This document shows positions 7,420 through 59,700 of a DNA stretch of 64,000 bases, piece after piece (position 1 is the first letter of the stretch; each line of letters opens with the position of its first letter). The DNA lies in NCBI RefSeq assembly GCF_022682495.2, contig NC_071388.1, forward strand, positions 81,469,073-81,533,072. Direction: 5' to 3'. A program made the translations under genes and the position numbers. Below the pieces are notes generated by a model, which saw only the letters and a list, made by a program, of their open reading frames with translations, was not told the origin of the DNA and did no database searches. The DNA comes from Desmodus rotundus. Its lineage: Eukaryota > Chordata > Mammalia > Chiroptera > Phyllostomidae.

Positions 7420-7670
7420 CTTTTTTAAAAAAATTTTATTGTTATTCAATTACAGTTGTATGCCTTTTCTCCCCATCCCTCCACCCCACCCCAGCTGAAC
7501 CCACCTCCTTCCCCCACCTCCACCCTCCCCCTTGGTTTTGTCCATGTGTCCTTTATAGTAGTTCCTGTAATCCCCTCTTCCCACTGTCCCCTCCCCCGCC
7601 CTCCGGCTATTGTTAGATTGTTCTTAACTTCAATGTCTCTGGTTATATTTTATTTGCTTTTTTTTGTTGA

Positions 7671-8435
7671 TTATGTTCCAGTTAAAGGTGAGATCATATG
7701 GTATTTGTCCCTCACTTCCTGGCTTATTTCACTAAGCATAATGCTCTCCAGTTTCATCCATGCTGTTGCAAAGTGTATAAGCTCCTTCTTTCTCTCTGCT
7801 GCATAGAATTCCATTGTGTAAATATACCATGGTTTTTGGATCCACTTGTTTGCTGATGGGCACTTAGGTTGCTTCCAGTACGTGGCTATTGTCAATTGTG
7901 CTGCTATGAACATTGGGGTGCACAGGTTCTTTTGGATTGGTGTTTCAGGGTTCTTAGGGTATAATCCCAGCAGCGGAATTGATGGGTCAAAGGGAAGTTC
8001 CATTTTTAGTTTTCTGAGGAAATTCCATATTGTTTTCCACAGTGGCCTCACCAGTCTGCATTCCCACCAACAGTGCACTAGGGTTCCCTTTTCTCCTCAT
8101 CCTCTCCAACATTTGTTTATTGATTTTTTTATGTTGGCCACTCTGACTGGTGTGAGATGGTACCTCATTGTGGTTTTAATTTGCATCTCCCTGATGGCTA
8201 GTGATGCTGAGCATCTTTTCATATGTCTCTGGGCCCTCTGTATGTCTTCCTTGGAGAAGTGTCTGTTCAAGTCCTTTGCCCATTTTTTAATTGGGTTTTT
8301 TGTCTTCCTGGAGTGGAATCGTGTGAGTTCTTTATATATTTTGGAGATCAGGCCCTTGTCTGAGGTATTGTTAGCAAATATGTTTTCCCATACTGTTGGT
8401 TCTCTGTAATTTGGTGCTGTTTTCTTTAGCCATGC
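7671..8435 (-). pseudogene. L1 ORF2 C-terminal segment (nested copy)
   Basis: Encodes the ORF2 C-terminal domain, ending in 'MISPLTGT' before the stop at 7671. From 8096 down, the frame is open for 135 codons and nearly identical to the end of ORF2 in the 52.8-kb copy. At 8097-8099 a TGA replaces the second cysteine codon of the C-terminal zinc-knuckle-like motif (CX3CX7HX4C in the full-length copy). The 3' UTR follows. The rest of this ORF2 lies at 10308-10860 beyond the HAL1 insertion. It cannot make a functional protein because it is truncated, interrupted and carries this stop. Confidence 0.85.
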
Positions 8436-8837
8436 AGAAGCTTTTTATTTTTTATTTATTTTTTATTTTTTTAATATATTTATTGATTATGCTATTACAG
8501 TTGTCCCATTTCCCCCCCCCCACTCCACTCCATCCTGCCCACCCCCCTCCCTCCCACATTCCCCTACTATAGTTCATGTCCATGGGTCATACTTATAGTT
8601 CTTTGGCTTCTACATTTCCTACACTATTTTTACCCTCCCCCTGTCTATTTTCCACCTATCATCTATGCTACTTATTCTCTGTACCTTTCCCCCCCTCTCC
8701 CCCTCCCACTCCCTTATTGACAACCCTCATGTTCTAGTTGTTTGCCTAGTTTGCTCTTGTTTTTGTTTTATGTGTGGCCATTAATAACTGTGAGTTTGCT
8801 GTCATTTTTACTGTTCCTATTTTTGATCTTCTTTTTC

Positions 8838-9536
8838 TTAGGTAACTCCCTTTAACATTTCATATAATAAGGGCTTGGTGATGATGAGCTTCTTTAACTT
8901 GACCTTATCTGAGAAGCACTTTATCTTCCCTTCCATTCTAAATGATAGCTTTGCTGGATTCAGTAATCTTGGATGTAGGTCCTTGCGTTTAATCTTGGGT
9001 AATGTAATTATGATGTGCCTTGGTGTGTTCCTCCTTGGGTCCAGCTTCTTTGGGACTCTCTGAGCTTCCTGGACTTCCCAGAAGTCTATTTCCTTTGCCA
9101 GATTAGGGAAGTTCTCCTTCATTATTTGTTCAAATAAGTTTTCAATTTTTTGTTCTTCCTCTTCTCCTTCTGGCACCCCTATAATTTGGATGTTGGAACG
9201 TTTCAAGGTGTCCTGGAGGTTCCTAAGCCTCTCCTCATTTTTCCAAGTTCTTGTTTCTTCATTCTTTTCTGGTTGGATGTTTGTTTTTTCCTTCTGGTCC
9301 ACACCATTGATTTGAGTCCCAGTTTCCTTCTCATCACTATTGGTTCCCTGTACATTTTCCTTTGTTTCTCTTAGCATAGGCTTCATTTTTTCATCTGTTT
9401 TTCGAACAGATTCAACCAAGTCTGTGAGCATATTGATAACCAGTGCTTTGAACTGTGCATCCGATAGGTTGGCTATCTCTTCGTCGCTTAGTTGTATTTT
9501 TTCTGGAGCTTTGAAGTGTTCTGTCATTTGGGCCAT
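8838..9536 (-). CDS. HAL1 ORF1p-like RNA-binding protein with internal deletion
   Basis: A 232-codon open frame. Known L1 ORF1 proteins are trimeric RNA-binding nucleic-acid chaperones that coat the element RNA in cytoplasmic RNPs. Visible parts: an N-terminal segment with 'LSDEEIANLSDAQFKALVI' (residues about 16-34); a charged, probably coiled-coil stretch (about 35-112); an RRM-type region starting near 'SNIQIIGVPEGEEEEQKI' (about 114-131) and ending near 'RHIIITLPK'; then 'RLLNPAKLSF' of the C-terminal domain. Against ORF1 of the full-length L1 in this window (310 aa), about 47 residues are missing between the RRM and the C-terminal block, removing the segment that contains the conserved 'ETLQARREW' motif in that protein. 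The deletion keeps the frame. The 28.3-kb HAL1 copy still has this segment, so the loss is private to this copy or a subfamily. RNA binding is therefore doubtful although the frame is open to its natural stop. Confidence 0.75.
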   Translation of the reverse strand: MAQMTEHFKAPEKIQLSDEEIANLSDAQFKALVINMLTDLVESVRKTDEKMKPMLRETKENVQGTNSDEKETGTQINGVDQKEKTNIQPEKNEETRTWKNEERLRNLQDTLKRSNIQIIGVPEGEEEEQKIENLFEQIMKENFPNLAKEIDFWEVQEAQRVPKKLDPRRNTPRHIIITLPKIKRKDLHPRLLNPAKLSFRMEGKIKCFSDKVKLKKLIITKPLLYEMLKGVT

Positions 9537-9939
9537 TTTTTGTTTGTTTGTTTGTCTTGGCGCGTCTGTTACTTTAAGGGGCGGAGCCTTAGGTGTTCAC
9601 CGGGGCGGGGTTGCGCTGGTCGCTATGCTGTGACGCTGTACGTGGGGGAGGGGCCAAGAGGGAGCAATGGCGCTCGCCTCACTGTCCTCCGGATTTCAAT
9701 CTTCCACTCTGATACCCACAATCAAACTGGGCCACTCTGCTGCTGGTTCCCGAGTAAGTGGGCCTGTGCACACTCTAGGCCCCTGTGGGTCTCTCCAACA
9801 ACCTCTCCTGTGAGGCTGCGAGTCTCTCCTGCTGCCGCCCCAACCCCCACGGGCATTTTCAATCAGAGGTTTGAGGCTTTATTTCCCTGGTGCTGGAGCC
9901 CTGGGTTGCGAGATCTGCTTCACTCCCCACCGTTCGTCC

Positions 9940-10117
9940 GTTTTATCTGTGGGCGAAAGTGGTGCCGCCGGGTGCTACTTGCTGCTCTGCCTGGCCCGTT
10001 CTCCGCCACTCTGAGACCGGCCCTCTGGGTTTATTTGTGCAAATGTGGGGCCGCAGGGTCTGCTAGTGCTCGGACTGCCTGCGCCGTTGTCCCACACTCC
10101 GCCAGTCTCGGTCCCGC
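9940..10117 (-). repeat. ~89-bp tandem duplication in the HAL1 5' UTR
   Basis: On the + strand the first unit starts 'gttttatctgtggg' and the second 'gtttatttgtgcaa'. They then share, in the same order and spacing, 'gtgg.gccgc.gggt', 'ctgcctg..ccgtt' and 'cactc'. Two units are clear; the next block on the lower-coordinate side is only weakly similar. Confidence 0.7.
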
Positions 10118-10273
10118 CACAGCCACGCGAGTCCTCTCCCCCCGGTGCCCGTCTCAGCCCCTCCTACCAGTCTGGATGAATGTTTATTTTCTATTTCCTT
10201 GTTGTTGGTCCCCCTTGCTGTTCGATTCTCTGTCAGTTCTGGTTGTGTGAGGAGGCGCAGTGTGTCTACCTAC

Positions 10274-10284
10274 GCCGCCATCCT
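10274..10284 (-). promoter_or_regulatory. YY1-like site at the HAL1 5' end
   Basis: The + strand reads gccgccatcct, i.e. AGGATGGCGGC in element sense, starting 7 bases inside the 5' end. In human L1 a YY1 site near the 5' end directs accurate start-site choice. Here the position and core match, but binding is inferred. Confidence 0.55.
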
Positions 10285-10307
10285 GGATCCGAGAAGCTTT
10301 TTATTTT

Positions 10308-10860
10308 GATGAGGTCTCATTTGTTTATTCTTTCCTTTATGTCCCTTGCTTTAGGGGACATGTCTGTGAGGATGTTGCTGCGTGGAATGTCTGAGATTTT
10401 CCTGCCAATGTTTTCCTCAAGGACTTTTATGGTGTTACAACTTATATTTAAGTCTTTTATCCATCTTGAGTTTATTTTCGTGTATGGCATAAGTTGGTGA
10501 TCGAGTTTCATTTTTTTGCACGTAGCTGTCCAGATCTCCCAACACCATCTGTTGAAGAGGCTGTTTTTGCTCCATTTTATGCTTCTGCCTCCTTTGTCAA
10601 ATATTAATTGACCGTATAGACTTGAGTTTATTTCTGGGCTCTCTGTTCTGTTCCATTGGTCTATGTGCCTGTTTTTATGCCAGTACCAGGCTGTTTTGAT
10701 TATAGTGGCCTTGTAATACAGTTTGATATCAGGTATTGTGATCCCTCCTCTTTGTTCTTCTTTCTCAAAATTGCTGCAGCTATTCGGGGTCATTTATGGT
10801 TCCATATAAATTTCTGAAATGTTTGTTCTGTATCTGTGAAATATGTCATGGGTACTCTAA
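10308..10860 (-). pseudogene. L1 ORF2 segment of the nested copy, beyond the HAL1
   Basis: Continues the ORF2 reading of the 7420-10860 L1. The minus-strand frame at 10317-10793 contains '[20 protein letters not shown]' and '[17 protein letters not shown]', typical of the ORF2 region downstream of the reverse transcriptase. It ends at the truncation point at 10860 next to the TSD copy at 10861-10874. Confidence 0.85.
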
Positions 10861-10874
10861 TAAGTTGGTGATTT

Positions 10875-13855
10875 AGTTTCTTTTTTTTTTTTTTTTTTTT
10901 TTTGCATGTACCAGTCCAGTTCTCCCAACAGAATTTATTGAAGAACCTGTCTGTACTCCATTGTATGCTCATGCCCTCATTGTCAAATATTAATTGACCA
11001 TAGAGACATGGGTTTATTTCTGGGCTCTCTATTCTGTTCCACTGACCTATGTGTCTGTTTTTATGCCAGTACCAGACTACTCTTATTACTGTGGTCTTGT
11101 AGTATAGTTTGATATTGGGTATTGATATCTCTACTACTTTGTTCTTTCTTAATATTGCTGAGGTTATTTGGGGTCTTTTTTGGTTCCATATATATTTTGA
11201 AATATTTGTTCTATATTTGTGAAATATGTCATTGGTATTTTAATAGGAATTGCATTGAATCTATAGATTATTTTGCATAGTATGGAAATTTTAATTATGT
11301 TAATTCTTCCAATCCATGAACATGGCATATGCTTCCATTTATTTGTGTATTCCTTAATTTCTTTCTTCAGTGTTCTGTAGTTTTCTGAGTACAGGTCTTT
11401 TACCTCCTTGGTTAAATTTATTCCTAGGTACTTAATTTTTCTTGTTGCTAGAGTAAATGGGATTTTTTTCTGAATTTTTCTTTCTGATATTTCATTGTTG
11501 GTGTGCAAAAATGCCTTTGATTTCTGAATATCAACTTTGTATCATACTATATTGCCAAATTCATTTATTAGGTCTAGTAGTTTTTTGGTAGAGACTATAG
11601 GGTTTTCTATGTACACAATCATGTTGTCTGCAAATAATGACAGTTTTACTTCTTCTTTTCCAATTTGGATTTTTTTTTCCTTTTCTTTTCAGATTTTTAA
11701 AAAATTGTTTAAGTACAGTTGACTCCATTTTCCCACCAATACTCTCCACTGCCCCACCTCCCCCCACCTCCCACCCTCAATCCTTCCCCACTTTGGCTTT
11801 GTCCATGGGTCCTTTATACATGTTTCTTGATGACCCTTCCCTTTCTTTCCCACATTTTTCCCCTCCACCCTCTCCTCTGTTTACTGGATGATTTTTACTT
11901 CTTTTTGTTTGATAGCTGTGGCTAGACTTCCAGTATTATGCTGAATAAGAATGGTAAGAGCAGACATTCTTGTCTTCTTCCTGATCTTAAGGGGAAAGCT
12001 TTTAGTTTTGCCCACAGAGTATAACACTGGCTGAGGTTTCTTGTATATGGCTTTTATTATGTTGAGGTATGCTCCCTCTATTTCCACTTTGCTGAATGTT
12101 TTTATCATAAATGGGTGCCAGATTTCATCAAATACTTTTCCAGCACCTATTGATATGATCATGTAGTTTTTGTCTTTCATTTTGTTTATGTGTATATTAC
12201 ATTTATTGACTTGTGAATATTGTACCATTTTTTCATCCCTGGGATGAATCCCACTTGACTATGGTGTGTGATCTTTTTAATGTATTTCTGAATCTGGGTT
12301 GCTAGTATTTCGTCAAGCATTTTAGATCTATGTTCATCAGATCTATTGGCCTGTACTTTTCTTTCCTTGTTGTATCTTTGCTGGTTTTGGAATGAGGATG
12401 TTACTGGCCTTGTAAAAAGTTTGGGAGTCTTCCCTCTTCTTGAATTTTTTGCAATATATTGAGAAGGATAACAGTTAGTTCTTCCTTAAATGTTTGGTAA
12501 AATTCACCTGTGAAGCAACCTGGTCCAGGGCTTTTGTGTGCTAGGAGTTTTTTGATTACTGCTTTGATTTTACTATTTGTTATCAGTCTATTCAGGCTTT
12601 CTGGTTCTTCTTGATTCAGCTTTGGAAGATTGTATGTTTCTAGAAATTTGTCCATTTCACCCAGGTCTTCTAATTTCTTAGCATATCGTTGTTCACAGTA
12701 ATTTCTTACAATCCTTTGTACTTCTGTGGTAGCAGTTGTGACTTGTATTTCTGATTTTATATATTTGGGTCCTCTCTCTTTTTTTCTTGATGAGTCTGGT
12801 TAAAGGTTTGTCAATTTTTAAAATCTTTTCAATGAATCAGCTCCTGGATTTATTGATCCTTGAATTGTTCTTTTAGTCTCTATGTCATTTAAGTCTGCTC
12901 TGATGTTGATTATTTCCTTCCTTGTACTCCCTCTGGGCTTTGTTTGTCATTGTTACTCTAGACCTTTTAGATGTGGGTTTAGGTCACTTATTTGAGACTT
13001 CCCTATCTTCCTTAGGTAGTCCTGTATTGCCACGAACTCCCTGCTCAGGACTGCCTTCGTTGTGTCCCATAGCTTTTGGGTTGGTGTGAGTTCTTTTTCA
13101 TGTTTCCAGATACTTTTTGATTTTTTCCTTGATCTCATCATTGGCCCATTTATTATTTAATAACATATTATTCAGTCTTCATGTATTTGAACGTTTTTGA
13201 GTTTTTCCTTGAGATTGGTCTCTAGTTTCAATCCATTGTAATCTAAGCATATGCTTGATATGATTTCAGTTTTCTTAAATTTGTTGAATCTTGTTTTATG
13301 GCTCAGCATGTGGTCTGTTTTTGGAAATATTCCATGTGCATTTGAAAATGATGTATATTTTGCTTCTTTCGGGTGAAAGGTTTTGTATATATCAATTAAG
13401 TCCATTTGATCTAGAGAGTCATTCAGTGCCACAAGATCATTGCTAATTCTTCATTTTAAGATCTATCCATTGTTGACAGTGGGGCATTAAAACACCCTAT
13501 GATGATGTTTTGTTGTCAATATCTTTCTTGAGGTGCTCCAAGATTTTCTTTATATATTTAGGAGCTCCTATGTTGGGTGTATATATGTTTACAAGGGTTA
13601 TATCCTGCTGTTGGATTGTTCCTGTAAGTATTATGTAGTGTCTTGCTTTGTCCCTATTTATGATTTTGGTTTTGAAGCCTATTTTGTGTGATATAAGTAT
13701 TGCTACCCCAGTTTTCTTTTCATATCCAGTTGTTTGGCATATTTTTTCCATCCCTTCACTTTCAGTCTGTGTAGATCATTCATTCTGAAGTGGGTCTCTC
13801 GTAGACAGCATTTAAGAGGGTCATGTTTTCTTATCCATTCTAATGCCCTATGTCT
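10875..13855 (-). pseudogene. old L1 ORF2 relic (endonuclease and reverse transcriptase)
   Basis: Broken ORF2 of the host L1. Pieces read on the minus strand include an endonuclease segment with 'VAILISHKIGFKTKI' and 'YTPNIGAPKYIKKI' (13497-13751), a segment with 'DLIDIYKTFHPKEAKYTS' (13172-13432), an RT fingers segment with 'LAHKSPGPGCFTGEFYQTF' (12401-12655), and the RT end with '[20 protein letters not shown]' (11164-11508). The frame is lost repeatedly. Coding similarity stops at 13855, equal to about ORF2 codon 24, where the purine-rich repeat begins. A short L1 3' end is inserted at about 11690-11890. ORF2 proteins nick DNA and reverse-transcribe L1 RNA at the target; this copy is inactive. 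Confidence 0.85.
11690..11890 (-). mobile_element. ~200-bp L1 3'-UTR insertion inside the old L1 ORF2
   Basis: ORF2 sequence up to 'caatttggat' is interrupted by a T-rich run, 'aagtacagttgactcc' (an L1 3' end, reversed) and a C-rich 3' UTR ending near 'cctctgtttactgg'. ORF2 sequence then resumes at 'gatagctgtggctag'. In the intact L1 these two ORF2 pieces are close together, so this is a separate, severely 5'-truncated insertion. The TSD is unclear in the T-rich context. Confidence 0.7.
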
Positions 13856-27785: not shown

Positions 27786-28011
27786 AACAAGGAGTTATAT
27801 ATATTAGACTTTTAGCCCCAAAATATGTCACTTTGCATATTTTTCCAATTCAACTTTGACAATTTGAAGCAAAATATGGGAAGTGCCATAGAGACATGAC
27901 CAAAGCTCTCTAAGAGTTGAGGGCAAAAGAGGGATGAAGGAGGACTTCAAGAAAGAGGGGGTATTTAACCTGGGTTTTTGAGGTTGTACCTCAATAGAAA
28001 TTCAAGAAGTA

Positions 28012-28914
28012 CCAAATCATTGATTTGAGTCCTGGTTTCCTTCCTGTCACTGTTGGTTCCATGAATATTTTGCTTTATTTCATTTTGGGTATCTTTCATT
28101 TGTTCTTTCATTTTTCGATCAAGCTCAATCAGTTCTGTGAGCATATTGATTACCAGGGCTTTAAATTCTCTATCAGACAGGTTGGCTGTCTCCTCATCGC
28201 TTAGCTCTCTTTCTGGAGTTTTGCTCTATTCTTTCTTTTGGGCCCTGTTTCTTTGTCTCAGAGCACTTAAAAGCAGCACGAGGAAAGGATAGAGTTCCCA
28301 TGAGACTATCAGCTGATTTCTCAAAAGAAACCTTGCAGGCAAGAAGGGGTCAGAAAGAAGTATTTGAAGTCATAAAGGGCAAGGAACTACATTCAAGATT
28401 TCTCTATCCAGATAAAGTGCTTCCCAGATAAGGTAAAGTTAAAGGAGTTCATTATCACCAAGCCTTTATTATATGAAGTGTTAAAGGGACTTATCTAAGA
28501 AATTGAAGAAGATCAAAAACTATGAACAGTAAAATGACAACAAACTCACAACTATCAACAAATGAACCTAAAAAAAAGAAAAACAACAAAAACAAAAACT
28601 AAGCAAACAACTAGAACAGGAACAGAATCAGAGAAATGGAGATCACACGGAGGGTTTTCAGTGGGGAGGGGGAGGGGAGGAATAGGGGGGAAAAGATGGA
28701 ATAAGAAGCATAATTGGTAGGCATAAAATAGATGGGGAGAGGTTAAGAATGGTATAGGAAACAGAATTCAAAGAGCTTCTATGTACAACCCATGGACATG
28801 AACTAACTGGGGTGGGGGGATGCTGGAGGGTTAGGGGGTCCAGGGTGGAGGGAGGATAAAGAGGGAAAAATTGGGAAAATTGTAATAGTGTAATCAATAA
28901 AATATACAAAAACA
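28012..28914 (+). mobile_element. HAL1 copy with 5' inversion (twin priming)
   Basis: The left part (28012 to about 28258) is in minus orientation and encodes the ORF1 N-terminal region ('cctcatcgcttagctctct' antisense to the 'LSDEE' part). The right part (about 28259-28914) is in plus orientation and encodes the ORF1 C-terminal region, then the HAL1 3' UTR ('aactcacaactatcaacaaa', 'caaacaactagaacagga') and the tail 'tgtaatcaataaaatatac'. Flanks agaaattcaagaagta (27996-28011) and agaaattcataaagta (28915-28930) are a 16-bp TSD with two mismatches. There is no ORF2 between ORF1 and the 3' UTR. The copy keeps the C-terminal segment missing from the 8.4-kb copy. Confidence 0.85.
28259..28497 (+). 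pseudogene. HAL1 ORF1 C-terminal remnant
   Basis: Reads from 'ALKAARGK' through 'FSKETLQARR', a hallmark of L1 ORF1 C-terminal domains, to 'LLYEVLKGLI' before a stop. An internal stop and the missing, inverted N-terminal half make it non-functional. It is useful as a reference showing what the 8838-9536 frame has lost. Confidence 0.75.
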
Positions 28915-28930
28915 AGAAATTCATAAAGTA

Positions 28931-46046: not shown

Positions 46047-46600
46047 TAATCTTATTTGAGGGCTTATTCCGTGTCCGATATTGTGCCAGATGGGTGCTAT
46101 TATTGTCTCCATTTATAGATGAGGACAGAGAGATTGAGCAATTTACCCAAAGTCATTAGCTGGCAAGGGACAAAGCTGGGCAATCTCACTTTTTAGCTAT
46201 GCTCTTCTTTTTCTTTCTTTCTTTTTTTAAAGAAAGGCAGACTGCCGTGTGCATTGCCTCATTTGGATGTGTTTGGAGTCTTTGAAGCTGACTACCCCAT
46301 GTTCTCTTACAAATGGACTTTGAGAGCTAGTTTGGAGGTTCTAGCAGGGGAGCGCAGCTACTCCTATACCCTTGACCAAAGACCTGTCCTCTCCTATAAT
46401 TGGGAAGGTCGTCCTCTTCCACCCAGCGTTCAGCTTCGGGAGTGATGGGCATGGATCAGTGAGGGAGGGAGGAAGGGGGCACCTGCCTAACCAGCCAGAT
46501 CAGCCGAATCAACTCTGCGATCAATGGGATGACAGATGTCGCAGCCAGGTCACCCTCACATCCTGTAGCCATGCTCTTAATGGCTACCCTAAATGTTGTC
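46047..46600 (-). mobile_element. MIR SINE split by the 7SK retrocopy
   Basis: Antisense MIR core ('attgtgccagatgggtgcta', 'ctccatttatagatgaggac', 'cccaaagtcattagctggca') runs to 46206 and seems to resume at 46579 ('aatggctaccct'). The 7SK copy and its duplicated target site lie between. Confidence 0.6.
46229..46563 (-). pseudogene. 7SK small nuclear RNA retropseudogene
   Basis: 7SK is a ~331-nt Pol III RNA that, with HEXIM and LARP7, holds P-TEFb inactive. This copy spans its full length on the minus strand. The 5' end GGATGTGAGGG is at 46563; 'GCGACATCTGTCA', 'TTGATTCGGCTGATCTGGCT', 'GTAGCTGCGCTCCCCTGCTA', 'GAACCTCCAAAC' and 'CACATCCAAATGAGGC' follow in order; the 3' end GGCAGTCTGCCTTTCTTT is at 46229. 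An A-rich tail (T-rich on +, 46207-46228) follows, and a 13-bp TSD with one mismatch flanks it (tagctatgctctt 46194-46206, tagccatgctctt 46566-46578). The 5' hairpin GCGATC, part of the HEXIM-binding stem, reads GTGACC here. No Pol III upstream promoter travelled with it. It is a processed copy, not the gene. Confidence 0.93.
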
Positions 46601-53071: not shown

Positions 53072-56000
53072 TTATGTTCCAGTTAAAGGTGAGATCATAT
53101 GGTATTTGTCCCTCACTTCCTGGCTTATTTCACTTAGCATAATGCTCTCCAGTTTCATCCATGCTGTTGCAAAGGGTATAAGCTCCTTCTTTCTCTCTGC
53201 TGCGTAGAATTCCATTGTGTAAATATACCATAGTTTTTGGATCCACTCGTTTGCTGATGGGCACTTAGGTTGCTTCCAGTACTTGGCTATTGTAAATTGT
53301 GCTGCTAGGAACATTGGGGTGCACAGATTCTTTTGGATTGGTGTTTCAGTGTTCTTAGGGTATAATCCCAGCAGCGGAATTACTGGGTCAAAGGGAAGTT
53401 CCATTTTTAGTTTTCTGAGGAAATTCCATATTGTTTTCCACAGTGGCCTCACCAGTCTGCATTCCCACCAACAGTGCACGAGGGTTCCCTTTTCTCCACA
53501 TCCTCTCCAACATTTGTTTGTGGATTTGTTTATGTTGGCCACTCTGACTGGTGTGAGATGATACCTCATTGTGGTTTTAATTTGCATCTCTCTGATAGCT
53601 AGCGATGCTGAGCATCTTTTCATATGTCTCTGGGCCCTCTGTATGTCTTCCTTGGAGAAGTGTCTGTTCAAGTCCTTTGCCCATTTTTTAATTGGGTTGT
53701 TTGTCTTCCTGGAGTGGAGTTGTGTGAGTTCTTTATATATTTTGGAGATCAGGCCCTTGTCTGAGGTATCGTTGGCAAATATGTTTTCCCATATTGTTGG
53801 TTCTCTTTGTAATTTGGTGCTGTTTTCTTTAGCCATGCAGAAGCTTTTTATTTTGATGAGGTCCCATTTGTTTATTCTTTCCTTTATGTCCCTTGCTTTA
53901 GGGGATGTGTCTGTGAGGATGTTGCTGCGTGGAATGTCTGAGATTTTCCTGCCAATGTTTTCCTCAAGGACTTTTATGGTGTTACGGCTTATATTTAAGT
54001 CTTTTATCCATCTTGAGTTTATTTTCGTGTATGGCGTAAGTTGGTGATCGAGTTTCATTTTTTTGCACGTAGCTGTCCAGATCTCCCAACACCATCTGTT
54101 GAAGAGACTGTTTTTGCTCCATTTTATGCTCCTGCCTCCTTTGTCAAATATTAATTGATCGTATAGATTTGAGTTTATTTCTGGGCTCTCTATTCTGTTC
54201 CATTGGTCTATGTGCCTGTTTTTATGCCAGTACCAGGCTGTTTTGATTACCGTGGCCTTGTAATACAGTTTGATATCAGGTATTGTGATCCCTCCTGCTT
54301 TGTTCTTCTTTCTCAAAATTGCTGCAGCTATTCAGGGTCGTTTATGGTTCCATATGAATTTCTGAAATGTTTGTTCTATATCTGTGAAATATGTCATGGG
54401 TACTCTAATAGGGATTGCATTGAATCTATAAATTGCTTTGGGTAGTATGGCCATTTTGATGATGTTAAGTCTTCCAATCCATGAGCATGGTACATGCTTC
54501 CATTTGTTTGTGTCTTCCTTAATTTCTTTATTCAGTGTTGTGTAGTTTTCTGAGTACAGGTCTTTTACCTCCTTGGTTAGGTTTATTCCTAGGTACTTTA
54601 TTTTTCTTGTTGCTATATCAAATGGGATTTTTTTCCTGATTTCTGTTTCTGCAGTTTCGTTGCTGGTGTACAGGAATGCCTTTGATTTCTGGGTATTGAC
54701 TCTGTATCCAGCTATTTTGCCAAATTCATTTATTAGGTCGAGTAGTTTTTGAGTGGAGTCTATAGGGTTTTCCATGTCCACTATCATGTCGTCTGCAAAC
54801 AGTGACAGTTTCATTTCCTCCTTTCCAATTTGGATGCCTTTTATTGCTTTTTCTTGTCTGATTGCTGTGGCTAGGACTTCCAATACTATGTTGAATAGGA
54901 GTGGTGAGAGAGGGCATCCTTGTCTTGTTCCTGATCTTAGTGGGAAAGCTCTAAGTTTTTGTCCATTGAGTGTGATGTTGGCTCTAGGTCTCTCATATAT
55001 GGCCTTAATTATGTTGAGGACTGCTCCCTTTATTCCCACTTTGCTGAGTGTTTTTATCAGAAATGGGTGCTGTATCTTATCGAATGCTTTTTCCGCATCT
55101 ATTGATATGATCATGTGATTTTTGTCTTTGCTGTTGTTGATGTGATGTATTATGTTTATTGATTTGCGAATATTGTACCATCCTTGCATCCCTGGGATGA
55201 ATCCCACTTGGTCATGGTGGATGATCTTTTTAATATATTGCTGGATGCGGTTTGCTAATATTTTGTTGAGAATTTTAGCGTCTATGTTCATCAGCGATAT
55301 TGGCCTGAAGTTTTCTTTCTTTGTTGTGTCTTTATCTGGTTTTGGGATTAGGATGATGCTGGCTTCATAAAAAGAGTTTGGGAGTCTTCCATCAGTTTGG
55401 ATTTTTTCGAATAGTCTGTGAAGGATAGGGGTTAGTTCTTCCTTAAATGCTTTGTAGAAATCTCCTGTGAAACCATCTGGTCCAGGGCTTTTGTGTGATG
55501 GGAGTTTCTTGATGACTGCTTCAATTTCCTTTGCTGATATTGGTCTGTTCAGGTTTTCTGCTTCTTCTTCATTCAGTTTTGGAAGATTATATTTTTCTAG
55601 AAATGTGTCCATTTCATCTAGGTTTTCAAATTTCTTAGCATATAGGTCTTCATAGTAATTTCTTACGATCCTTTGTATCTCTGTGGTATCAGTTGTAATC
55701 TCTCCACTTTCATTTCTAATTCTGTTTATTTGGATCCTCTCTCTTTTCTTCTTGATAAGCCTACTTAAAGGCTTGTCGATTTTGTTTATCTTTTCAAAGA
55801 ACCAGCTTCTGGATTCATTGATCCTTACAATTGTGCTTTTAGTCTCTATGTCATTTAGTTCTGCTCTGATCTAGGTTATTTCCTTCCTTCTGCTTGCTCT
55901 GGGCTGTCTTTGTTGTTCCTCCAGTTCTTGTAGGCATAGGGTTAGGTTGTTTGTTTGAACTGTTTCTACCTTTTAAGGTAGGCCTGTATTGCTATGAACT

Positions 56001-56888
56001 TCCCTCTCAGGACTGCCTTTGCTGTGTCCCATAGGTTTCGGGTTGTTGTGAGTTCGTTTTCATTTGTTTCCAGGAAGTTTTTGATTTCTTCCCTAATCTC
56101 GTTCTTGACCCATTCATTGTTTAATAGCATGCTATTCAGTCTCCATGATTTTTAGTGTTTTGGGTTTTACCCTTGGGGTTGGTTTCTAGTTTCAGACCCT
56201 TGTGGTCAGAGAAGATGCTTGATATGATTTCAATTTTCTTGAATTTGTTGAGGCTTGCTTTGTGTCCTATCATGTGGTCTATCTTTGAAAAAGTTCCATG
56301 GACACTTGAAAAGAATGTGTATTTTGCTTCTTTGGGATGAAAAGCTCTGTATATATCAGTTAAGTCCATTTCCTCTAGGGTATTGTTAAGTGACACAATA
56401 TCTTTGTTGATCTTTTGTTTGGAAGACCTGTCCATTTTTGATAGTGGGGTGTTAAATTCCCCTACTATAATTGTGTTGCTGTCAATATCTTTCTTGAAAT
56501 CCTCCAAGATTTTCTTTATGTATTTGGGTGCTCCTATGTTGGGTGCATATATATTTATAATGTTTATGTCTTCTTGGTGGATTCTTCCTTTGAGTATTAT
56601 GAAGTGACCTTCTGGGTCTCTCTTTATGGCCCTTCTTTGGAAGTCTATTTTGTCTGATATGAGAATTGCTACCCCTGCTTTTTTTTCCTGTCCGTTTGCT
56701 TGGAAAATTTGTTTCCAGCCCTTCACTTTCAGTCTGTGTAAGTCTTTTGTCCTGAGATGGGTTTCTTGTAGGCAGCATATGTGTGGGTCATGTTTTCTTA
56801 TCCATTCAGCTGTTCTATGTCTTTTGATTGGAGCATTTAATCCATTTACGTTTAAGGTTATTATCGATAGGTAGTTATTCATTGCCAT
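53072..56888 (-). pseudogene. L1 ORF2: endonuclease, reverse transcriptase, Cys-rich domain; four lesions
   Basis: Encodes about 1,270 residues in three recognisable parts. The endonuclease (56888-56136, 250 codons) keeps N13, E42 ('QETH'), N146, D204 and S227-D228-H229, but the position equal to the human L1 catalytic D145 is E144 ('GEFNT'). The reverse transcriptase (within 55870-54335) has motif A '[10 protein letters not shown]' and the catalytic 'FADD'. The C-terminal part (54331-53072) has a CX3CX7HX4C zinc-knuckle-like motif ('CWRGC...H....C') and ends 'SPLTGT'. Lesions: a frameshift near 56146-56160, a frameshift near 55968-55976, a TAG at 55871-55873, and a TGA at 54332-54334. The TGA stands where CGA would be expected, consistent with CpG decay. 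From 55870 to 53072 the TGA is the only stop. It should not make active ORF2p, though lesions are few and the copy is recent. Confidence 0.92.
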
Positions 56889-56934
56889 TATTTCCTACCT
56901 GTGTTCCTCTGTCTTTCTCTTTTCCTTCCTTTCC

Positions 56935-57867
56935 TTAAAGCAGTCCCTTTAGCATCTCTTGCAGAGCTGGTTTGGTGGAGCTGTATTCTTTTAGACTTCT
57001 TTTGTCTGGGAAACTCTTTATTTGGTCTTCTATCTTGATTGAGAGCCTTGCTGGGTAAAGTAGTCTTGGTTGCAGGCCTCTGGTTCTCATTATTTGGAAT
57101 ATTTTTTGCCATTCTCTTCTGGCTTGGAGTGTTTCCATTGAGAAGTCAGTTGCTAACCTTATTGGGGCTCCCTTGTATGTTACTTCCTTTTTCTCCCTTG
57201 CTGCCTTTAAGATCCTCTCTTTGTCTTGGAAATTTGCCATTTTAATTATGATGTGTCTTGCAGTGGGTCTCTTTGGGTTCCTCTTGTTTGGGACTCTCTG
57301 TGATTCCTGGATTTGGGTGACTTTTTCTCTCTTCAGATTAGGGAAATTTTCCATCATTACTTTTTCAAACAGGTTTTCTATCCCTTGCTCTTCTTCTTCT
57401 CCTTCTGGTATTCCTATTATACGGATATTGTTACGTTTCATGTTGTCCTGCATTTCCCTTATTGCCTCTTCATTCTTTCTGAGCCTCTTTTCCTTTTCTT
57501 GCTCCTTCTGAGTGTTTTTTTCTACTTTATCCTCCAGCTCGCTGATCCGAACCTCTGCTTCATCAAGTCTGCTTTTAATTCCTTCTTCTGTGTTCTTCAA
57601 TTCAGAAATTGTATTCTTCATTTCCTCTTGGCTCTTGTTGATATTTTCTATTTCCTTTTTCATGTTGATATAGTTTGCAGTGAGTTCATTGTAGTTTCCT
57701 TGTAGTTTCTGGTAGTTCTCTTTGAGCTCAGAGAGCTCAGTGAACTTCCTGATGACCATTGCTTTGAACTCAGTATCTGATAGTTGACTTGCCTCTTTTT
57801 CGGTTAGTATTCTTTCTGAGACTTCCTCCTTTCCTTTCATTTGGGAATTGTTTCTTTGTCTTCCCAT
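56935..57867 (-). CDS. L1 ORF1p, intact
   Basis: A 310-codon frame from ATG to stop, close to the ~338 residues of human ORF1p. L1 ORF1p forms trimers, binds L1 RNA in cis and acts as a nucleic-acid chaperone in the RNP. Visible parts: a polar N-terminus; a long heptad-rich coiled coil at about residues 45-140 ('ENYQKLQGNYNELTANYINM' ... 'ISELEDKVEKNTQKEQEKEK'); an RRM beginning about residue 145 ('NNIRIIGIPEGEEEEQGIEN'); and a C-terminal domain with 'ETLQARREWQKIF' and 'LLYPARLSIKIEDQIKSF'. The start is preceded by a 373-bp 5' UTR; ORF2 begins 46 bp after the stop, the usual L1 arrangement with reinitiation-type translation. No internal stop or frameshift. It is the only complete transposon protein frame in the window. 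Confidence 0.93.
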   Translation of the reverse strand: MGRQRNNSQMKGKEEVSERILTEKEASQLSDTEFKAMVIRKFTELSELKENYQKLQGNYNELTANYINMKKEIENINKSQEEMKNTISELKNTEEGIKSRLDEAEVRISELEDKVEKNTQKEQEKEKRLRKNEEAIREMQDNMKRNNIRIIGIPEGEEEEQGIENLFEKVMMENFPNLKREKVTQIQESQRVPNKRNPKRPTARHIIIKMANFQDKERILKAAREKKEVTYKGAPIRLATDFSMETLQARREWQKIFQIMRTRGLQPRLLYPARLSIKIEDQIKSFPDKRSLKEYSSTKPALQEMLKGLL

Positions 57868-58989: not shown

Positions 58990-59700
58990 CAATCTTAGAG
59001 CAGGCTGCTCTGATCTCTTCCTTTTATTGGGGCACTAATCCTGTAGAATCTCCAAATTTATGACCTCATTTAAAGTTAACTACCAATGTTCATAGCAGCA
59101 CAGTTTACAATAGCCAAGTGTTGGAAGCAACCTAAGTTCCCAGTAAATGAATGGATCAAAAAAGTGTAGTACATTTACACAATGGGATGCTATGCAGCAG
59201 AATGAAAGAAAGAGCTTCTACCCTTCATGTCAGCATGGGGGGATCTGGAGAGCATTATGCTAAGTGAAATAAGCCAGGCAGTGAAAGACAAATACCATAT
59301 GATCTCACCTGTAAGTAGAACCTAATCAACAAAACAAATAAGCAAGCAAAATAGAACCAGAGACATGGAAATAAAGAACAAACTGACAGTTACCAGAGAG
59401 GCAGGGGGAGAGGGATAAGGGGGGAAAATAGGAGAAGGATTGTCAAGGAACACATATAAAGGACACATGGACAAAGCCAAAGGGGGTAGGGTTGAGGATG
59501 GGAGGCGGGGATGGGTAGGGTGAGGGGGAGTGGTGATGGGGAAATGGAGACAACTGTATTTGAACAACAATAAAAAAAATAAAGCTAACTACCTCCCAAA
59601 GGTTCCACTTTCAAATATCATCACATTAAAAATTAAGTCTTCAGCATATAAAAATTTTTCTGGTGGAGGTTTACAAACATTCAGTCCATAGCAGGTGCTA
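58990..59700 (-). mobile_element. MaLR-type (MST/MLT-like) LTR split by an L1
   Basis: Left piece: 'ttattggggcactaatcct' and 'tatgacctcatttaaag'. Right piece: 'cctcccaaaggttccacttt', 'atatcatcacattaaaaatt' and 'acaaacattcagtccatag'. Together they follow the antisense start of MST/MLT LTRs of the ERVL-MaLR group. The L1 at 59085-59580 lies between them. No internal retroviral sequence. Confidence 0.65.
59085..59580 (+). mobile_element. 5'-truncated L1 inside the LTR
   Basis: Holds the last part of ORF2 and the 3' UTR, ending 'gagacaactgtatttgaaca' and 'acaataaaaaaaataa'. TSD aaagttaactacc at 59072-59084 and aaagctaactacc at 59581-59593 (one mismatch). Confidence 0.9.

What the first reader, a model, noticed from the sequence alone, without database searches (positions are those of the whole stretch)
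8452..10291. Young, structurally complete HAL1: an ORF1-only element with no ORF2
Two copies in this window (here and 28012-28914) run from ORF1 directly into the same 3' UTR. A family that keeps only the RNA-binding protein and borrows the endonuclease/RT is a parasite of L1 that still codes for protein. The exact TSD, open frame and retained CpGs suggest recent mobility. HAL1 as a class is known; recent activity in this species is the point to test.
Basis: partly seen in the sequence, partly recalled or inferred. Interest (0 to 1): 0.75.

Follow-up and report, generated by a model that had tools for sequence, protein, structure and literature searches.

The report
Bat half-LINE with a broken RNA-binder
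This is a young copy of a mobile element in a bat-like genome that kept only one of the two genes it needs to move, and that one gene has lost the core of its RNA-binding part, yet related copies still spread recently, most likely by borrowing the machinery of an active full-length relative.

Summary
Confirmed: 10291..8452 (minus strand) is a full-length HAL1 ("half-L1") insertion with a perfect 16-bp target-site duplication, an open 232-codon ORF1, no ORF2 and a short 3' UTR; the joined flanks match an empty L1 site elsewhere in the window. The genome behind the window answered: the 39 other copies scored (of 8586 candidates) are 93-96% identical, full-length or nearly so, without ORF2. None is 98% identical to this copy, but 15 of 780 pairs among the 40 are; the four closest pairs share no flank similarity. 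So the family, rather than this copy, was very recently mobile. Older full-ORF1 HAL1s (30 of 30 fetched show no ORF2) surround this deletion lineage in the tree. Substitutions inherited within it show no purifying selection. Best reading: an RNA parasite of a very young L1 that takes ORF2p and probably ORF1p in trans; its own frame looks like a relic. HAL1s and recent HAL1 activity are known; this is a new variant.

The parts
8452..10291 (-). HAL1 insertion, deletion subfamily, 1840 bp, full length
   Evidence: Matched over all or nearly all its length by 39 other scored genomic copies; TSD and empty-site test
9537..10291 (-). 5' UTR, 755 bp, CpG-rich, begins CGGATCCAGGATGGCGGCG; 27 of the other 29 copies begin at or within a few bases of GAGAACCAAGATGGCGGCG (L021 and L030 begin later). 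A YY1-like ATGGCGGC near the start is recalled from human L1, not tested
8838..9536 (-). ORF1, 232 codons plus stop, open; lacks 47 codons of HAL1/L1 ORF1
8973..8996 (-). Scar of the 141-nt in-frame deletion (codons 181-188); CAAGGA lies at both edges in an undeleted variant
   Evidence: 25-nt segment in 40 of 40 deleted copies; 166 nt in 29 of 30 and 163 nt in 1 of 30 undeleted copies
8452..8837 (-). 3' UTR joined directly to the ORF1 stop, ending in an A-rich tail
   Evidence: 3' UTR match directly after ORF1 in 30 of 30 undeleted copies
10292..10307 (-). Target-site duplication, 5' copy
8436..8451 (-). Target-site duplication, 3' copy
7434..8451 (-). 3' part of the 5'-truncated L1 into which the element inserted (other part 10292-10862)
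   Evidence: 94.9% and 96.9% identical to the L1 at 52-58 kb
28012..28256 (-). Second HAL1, inverted 5' piece (ORF1 N-terminal part)
28257..28926 (+). Second HAL1, 3' piece: ORF1 C-terminal part with sequence from the stretch that the first copy lacks, then 3' UTR
   Evidence: imperfect TSD at 27996 and 28915
53072..57867 (-). Nearly intact L1 (ORF1 56935-57867; ORF2 pieces 56136-56888, 54332-55612, 53072-54316): candidate helper family
   Evidence: 39 further copies scored, about 99% identical over 1732 bp (40 of 3743 candidates scored)

Best explanation
The element is a HAL1 retrotransposon of a bat (probably phyllostomid, inferred). Shown: its closest relatives with a longer ORF1 also lack ORF2; one lineage carries a 141-nt in-frame deletion in ORF1, and that lineage multiplied as copies with target-site duplications and A-rich tails. 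Inferred: RNA polymerase II transcribes it from its CpG-rich 5' UTR; the A-tailed RNA is taken up by the ORF2 protein, and most probably also the ORF1 protein, of a very young L1 family; L1 endonuclease nicks the target and target-primed reverse transcription inserts the copy. Its own truncated ORF1 protein is not needed; the frame stays open mainly because the copies are young.
For: TSD, A-rich tail and empty site; TSD of 9 bp or more in 27 of 40 copies against 64 of 1560 swapped-flank controls. Deletion in 40 of 40 scored copies and in 49 of 120 listed database proteins. Deletion lineage monophyletic (UFBoot 76) inside undeleted HAL1s; mean distance within deleted 0.046, within undeleted 0.089, between 0.092. 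No ORF2 in 40 of 40 deleted copies (stretch lengths) and no endonuclease match in 30 of 30 undeleted ones. Recent movement: L023/L026 11 differences in 1826, L020/L040 12 in 1684, L035/L036 17 in 1846, no flank similarity. Inherited non-CpG changes in ORF1: 26 missense to 12 silent in 2-3 copies, 10 to 1 in 4 or more; dN/dS 0.3 rejected (P 0.0011 and 0.0048), neutrality not. The lost stretch holds R235 and R261/R262; R261A lowers RNA binding and abolishes retrotransposition (PMC10202459, passages). RNA-polymerase-II transcripts needed added ORF1p besides ORF2p in a cell assay (PMC2666806, abstract). Helper: 39 L1 copies about 99% identical.
Against: No expression or mobilisation data. 32 of 40 copies keep the start and have no premature stop against 25.8 (20-31) in a neutral simulation. 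Undeleted HAL1 against the window's L1 ORF1 gives dN/dS 0.17 with saturated dS, so the frame was constrained in the long term and the point where constraint ended is not resolved; undeleted HAL1s also give about 0.8-1.0 for inherited changes. Between majority states of deleted and undeleted copies missense changes are in excess (21.5 to 1.5; dN/dS 3.8, bootstrap 1.2-13.8), which could mean adaptation instead of decay. In vitro, R261A protein still drew RNA into condensates (PMC10202459, passage), so loss of these residues need not end all RNA contact. The deleted copies studied are the best-scoring 40 of 8586 candidates, chosen by likeness to this copy. An ORF1 control on the L1 family could not be run.
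Confidence: 0.72

Rival explanations
1. The truncated ORF1 protein still works for the element: it keeps the N-terminal region and the coiled coil, so it could trimerise (with itself or with L1 ORF1p) and bring the HAL1 RNA into L1 particles or compete with L1.
For: Frame intact in 31 of 40 copies; slightly more open frames than the neutral simulation; excess of missense over silent change between undeleted and deleted majority states; the deletion is exactly in frame; PMC10202459 (discussion passage) cites another study's finding that N-terminal region plus coiled coil alone condense.
Against: dN/dS near 1 within the lineage, 0.3 rejected; residues needed for RNA binding by human ORF1p are lost.
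Confidence: 0.12
2. The 47-codon gap is a spliced intron: RNAs of undeleted HAL1s lose the segment again and again (SpIRE-like) and are inserted, so there is no deletion lineage.
For: Same edges in 40 of 40 copies; N-terminal variants occur with and without the gap among database proteins.
Against: No GT...AG in any register of the lost segment and CAAGGA at both edges (read). The gap goes with linked residues downstream (K204, S209, K216, T232), and the 40 genomic copies form one clade (UFBoot 76). The mixed N-termini may come from how the hits were chosen, or from template switching.
Confidence: 0.05
3. An ordinary L1 that lost ORF2 in this one place (a single broken L1, not a family).
For: ORF1 and 3' end resemble L1.
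Against: 39 of 39 other scored copies at 93-96% have the same layout without ORF2; 30 of 30 undeleted relatives fetched too.
Confidence: 0.01
4. The family is already extinct; the near-identical pairs come from gene conversion or assembly duplication.
For: This copy differs at 4% or more from every other scored copy, while the L1 family is about 99% identical.
Against: The close pairs lie on different contigs; of the eight closest pairs five share no flank similarity and three share only short matches of 109-352 bp at 73-83%. L023 and L026 have different TSDs (L023 by script; L026 read by eye).
Confidence: 0.1

Closest known systems
HAL1 (half-L1) retrotransposons of mammals (Bao and Jurka 2010, not held; cited in PMC5322556, passages read)
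   Same: ORF1 only, A-tail, TSDs, dependence on L1 reverse transcriptase/endonuclease
   Different: ORF1 lacks 47 codons of the RNA-binding core, in 40 of 40 copies of the lineage scored
Young HAL1 families of guinea pig, marmoset and rat (PMC3183009 Table 2 passages: HAL1-1H_Cpo 106 copies, HAL1-1C_Cja 32 copies under 1% divergence; rat in PMC8535693, passage)
   Same: Recent HAL1 activity
   Different: None of the 15 families under 1% listed for the bat Myotis lucifugus in that table is a HAL1; whether the other species' HAL1 ORF1s are complete was not checked
SpIREs, spliced L1 insertions (PMC5860796, start of abstract and passages)
   Same: L1-type RNA with an internal loss that alters ORF1p
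   Different: Here no splice signals, and the deleted form is inherited by many copies
SVA, Alu and processed pseudogenes (from the abstracts)
   Same: Moved in trans by L1 proteins
   Different: HAL1 derives from L1 itself and still has a protein frame

Membership tests
HAL1 | ORF1 homologous to L1 ORF1 present | tested here: met
   PF02994 4.5e-17, PF17490 1.6e-10; 37% identity to window L1 ORF1 over an alignment with 76 gap positions in 304
HAL1 | No ORF2 between ORF1 and 3' UTR, as a family trait | tested here: met
   40 of 40 scored copies by stretch length; 30 of 30 undeleted relatives without endonuclease match within 1.5 kb
HAL1 | TPRT hallmarks: TSD, A-rich tail | tested here: met
   TSD in 27 of 40 against 64 of 1560 controls
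HAL1 | Full-length (complete) ORF1 frame | tested here: not met
   47 codons absent in 40 of 40. The cited passage does not make completeness a defining feature, so membership stands
HAL1 | Mobilised by L1 proteins in trans | not testable with these tools
   Inferred from the TSD and from 67% identity over 203 aligned positions to the host L1's 3' end
Recently active family | Independent insertions over 98% identical | tested here: met
   15 of 780 pairs, 14 of 40 copies; the four closest pairs share no flank similarity
Recently active family | Insertion polymorphism between individuals; germline transcripts | not testable with these tools
   One assembly, no reads
Functional ORF1p (RNA chaperone) | Residues equivalent to human R235 and R261/R262 | tested here: not met
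   (numbering set from Y282 of YPAKLS, PMC5478143 passages)
Functional ORF1p (RNA chaperone) | Purifying selection on the frame | tested here: inconclusive
   dN/dS 0.88 and 3.1 for inherited changes, 1.13 for singletons; 0.3 rejected, 0.5 borderline; slight excess of open frames

The most novel reading that the evidence does not exclude
A HAL1 lineage turned its ORF1 into a different tool: a protein with coiled coil but no RNA-binding core that joins L1 ORF1p trimers, captures or poisons L1 particles in favour of HAL1 RNA, and was shaped by positive selection around the deletion.
Probability: 0.09. Interest if true: 0.8.

Novelty: new variant of a known kind. Interest (0 to 1): 0.42.

Why it matters
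Why HAL1s keep ORF1 at all is a natural question: to serve their own RNA in cis, or merely as left-over sequence. A lineage that lost the RNA-binding core and still spread is a natural experiment on it, and with deleted and undeleted HAL1s and a very young L1 in one genome the answer can be tested directly.

Tried and rejected
Copies outside the genome: no match in phages, viral contigs or genome contigs. Splicing as cause of the gap: rejected. Codon-45 stop as a sign of a stop-bearing master: 3 of 40 copies have TGA and 2 have CAA at this CGA codon, and the three TGA copies lie in different parts of the 30-copy tree, so recurrent CpG decay is enough. The first DNA alignment was wrong because loci were not turned to one strand; repeated. 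A protein tree of the 120 hits was too noisy and labelled cut-off proteins as undeleted; not used. Singleton dN/dS in the undeleted set (0.59) is biased because those copies were found by protein score; not used. Papers: the listings show no paper on a bat HAL1 with an ORF1 deletion, but most listed papers were not opened; Bao and Jurka 2010 is not held, so priority is not settled.

Full report
What is there. The element runs from 10291 down to 8452 on the minus strand: 5' UTR of 755 bp, ORF1 of 232 codons at 9536-8838, 3' UTR joined to the stop codon, A-rich tail. It is flanked by a perfect 16-bp TSD; joining the flanks with one TSD gives a sequence that aligns over 1158 bp, 39 mismatches and 2 gap openings, to the L1 at 54410-53253. 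So it inserted into a 5'-truncated L1 that is itself young. If both L1 copies come from one source, each carries about 1.7% change, which bounds the HAL1 insertion to roughly the last 6-8 million years at a recalled bat rate of 2.2-2.7e-9 per site and year (inference). The second copy, 28012-28926, is inverted in its 5' part, has an imperfect TSD (14 of 16) and is 25-27% different.

The protein. Pfam finds the RRM-like PF02994 (profile 1-74 of 98) and the C-terminal PF17490 (17-64 of 65) back to back. Against the window's L1 ORF1 the middle is missing. Against human ORF1p structures the match is split in two, chain residues 29-130 and 168-215, while the L1 ORF1 of the window aligns in one piece. 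With Y282 of YPAKLS as anchor (PMC5478143, passages) the missing stretch corresponds to about residues 227-273 and so includes R235 and R261/R262 (counted on the alignment). R261A strongly lowers RNA binding and abolishes retrotransposition, although the mutant protein still drew RNA into condensates in vitro (PMC10202459, passages).

Database proteins. The protein search gave 7997 hits, 120 listed. Of these 120, 49 have the same gap, 52 have the segment and 19 end or diverge before it (motif sorting, alignment). One of the 49, P0116, has another background and a glutamine at the joint and may be an independent event. Residues downstream of the gap go with it, N-terminal residues hardly do; as hits were chosen by likeness to this protein, that difference is partly selection. 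Nearly all listed hits are from short unnamed contigs; one, P0113, with the full segment, bears an Artibeus name.

The genome. The genome search answered three times; 8586 first-look candidates, 40 scored; the 39 besides the query itself are 93-96% identical over most or all of its length. The 40 copies (30 loci, ten) all have the deletion and 31 of 40 have the full 232-codon frame. Among the first 30 the mean pairwise distance is 4.2% (2.8% outside CpG). Among 780 pairs 15 are at least 98% identical, in 14 copies; the three closest differ at 11 of 1826, 12 of 1684 and 17 of 1846 sites. Flanks were compared for the eight closest pairs: five show no similarity, three only short matches (109 bp at 83%, 134 bp at 78%, 352 bp at 73%) (for L031-L040 only 200 bp of flank were held). 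L023 and L026 have different TSDs (L023; L026 read by eye, where the script had found none). Outside CpG L023/L026 differ by 0.18%, some 0.4 million years at the recalled rate. The window copy is not among these: 74 differences in 1830 to the nearest, 1.0% private change.

Undeleted relatives. with P0006 scored 140 of 124471 candidates; 30 were fetched. In none of the 30 was an endonuclease frame found in the 1.5 kb after ORF1, and all 30 match the same 5' UTR (some in part) and have the same 3' UTR directly after ORF1, so these are HAL1s too. Their mean distance is 8.6%, minimum 5.5%. Mean distances are 0.046 within deleted, 0.089 within undeleted and 0.092 between; 29 of 30 undeleted copies have 166 nt where 40 of 40 deleted ones have 25, and one has 163. 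The tree puts the deleted copies in one clade (UFBoot 76) inside the others. The minimum distance in the undeleted set is not a fair measure of its youngest members, as it was found by protein score; a DNA search for young undeleted copies did not complete.

Origin of the deletion. One undeleted variant reads AAGATTAAACA-CAAGGA-GAGAATC before the segment (the commonest reads AAGATGAAACAGAAGGAGAGAATC), the commonest form after it reads ATGAAAGG-CAAGGA-CCTAC, and deleted copies read AAGATTAAACG-CAAGGA-CCTAC. The loss thus lies between two CAAGGA repeats, and no register has GT...AG. Slippage or template switching is likely (inference). The codon at the scar, CGC, is decaying among copies (28 CGC, 7 TGC, 1 CAC, 4 others of 40), as expected for a CpG in independent copies.

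Selection. In 40 deleted copies, outside CpG: singletons 105 missense, 32 silent, 4 nonsense (neutral expectation 100.5, 34.7, 5.8); variants in 2-3 copies 26, 12, 0 (26.1, 10.6, 1.3); in 4 or more 10, 1, 0 (8.0, 2.5, 0.5). dN/dS of 0.3 is rejected for the inherited classes, 1 is not; 0.5 is borderline (P 0.068 and 0.038). With the first 30 copies alone, inherited against singleton changes had fewer missense ones (odds ratio 0.44, P 0.08), a hint of weak constraint that the larger set did not strengthen. In undeleted HAL1s the inherited classes give about 0.8-1.0, so relaxed constraint may precede the deletion. Against this, undeleted HAL1 versus L1 ORF1 gives 0.17 with saturated dS: the frame was constrained for long, in L1 or in both. 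Results that do not fit pure decay: 32 copies with start and without premature stop against 25.8 (20-31) expected (that simulation counts inherited CpG changes as new and so expects too few), and an excess of missense between deleted and undeleted majority states (21.5 to 1.5).

Mechanism. Shown: insertion with TSD and tail, no ORF2, shared deletion, recent copies. Inferred: transcription by RNA polymerase II, uptake by L1 proteins. A cell study found that such transcripts need ORF1p besides ORF2p (PMC2666806, abstract); as the HAL1's own ORF1 lacks the RNA-binding core, ORF1p would come from L1. A helper is at hand: 39 other copies of the window's L1 (of 40 scored among 3743 candidates) are about 99% identical over 1732 bp, many with the same score.

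What is known. HAL1s as ORF1-only elements dependent on L1 are known (PMC5322556, passages, citing Bao and Jurka 2010, which is not held). Recent activity is known in guinea pig and marmoset (PMC3183009, passages) and rat (PMC8535693, passage). The listings show no paper on a HAL1 lineage that lost the RNA-binding core of ORF1; most listed papers were not opened. Species: the look of the repeats (recalled) and the Artibeus hit point to a bat, and 14 large contigs in 2.12 Gb would fit a phyllostomid; this is inference.

Noticed in passing
window 53072-57867: L1 family of the window is extremely homogeneous: 39 other scored copies about 99% identical to this one, many with the same bit score, suggesting a very recent burst.
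   Followed up: partly
window 46229-46563 (-): Full-length 7SK RNA match (282 bits, E 5.5e-79), probably a retrocopy or a 7SK gene copy.
   Followed up: no
P0116: Same ORF1 gap on a different background with glutamine at the joint: possibly a second, independent deletion at the same repeats.
   Followed up: partly
Of the 49 database proteins with the gap, 22 begin at the residue aligned to 51 or 54 of this protein; codon 45 is CGA in 35 of 40 genomic copies and TGA in 3, which would make a gene caller start there. Whether a stop-bearing source exists elsewhere is open.
   Followed up: partly
Private deletions and inserted bases are far rarer in ORF1 (1 and 0) than in the 5' UTR (11 and 28) of 40 copies, although these copies should be free to decay.
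   Followed up: no
window 59083-59583 and 11669-11911: Further L1 3'-end matches near the two L1s, the first in opposite orientation: nested or inverted L1s.
   Followed up: no
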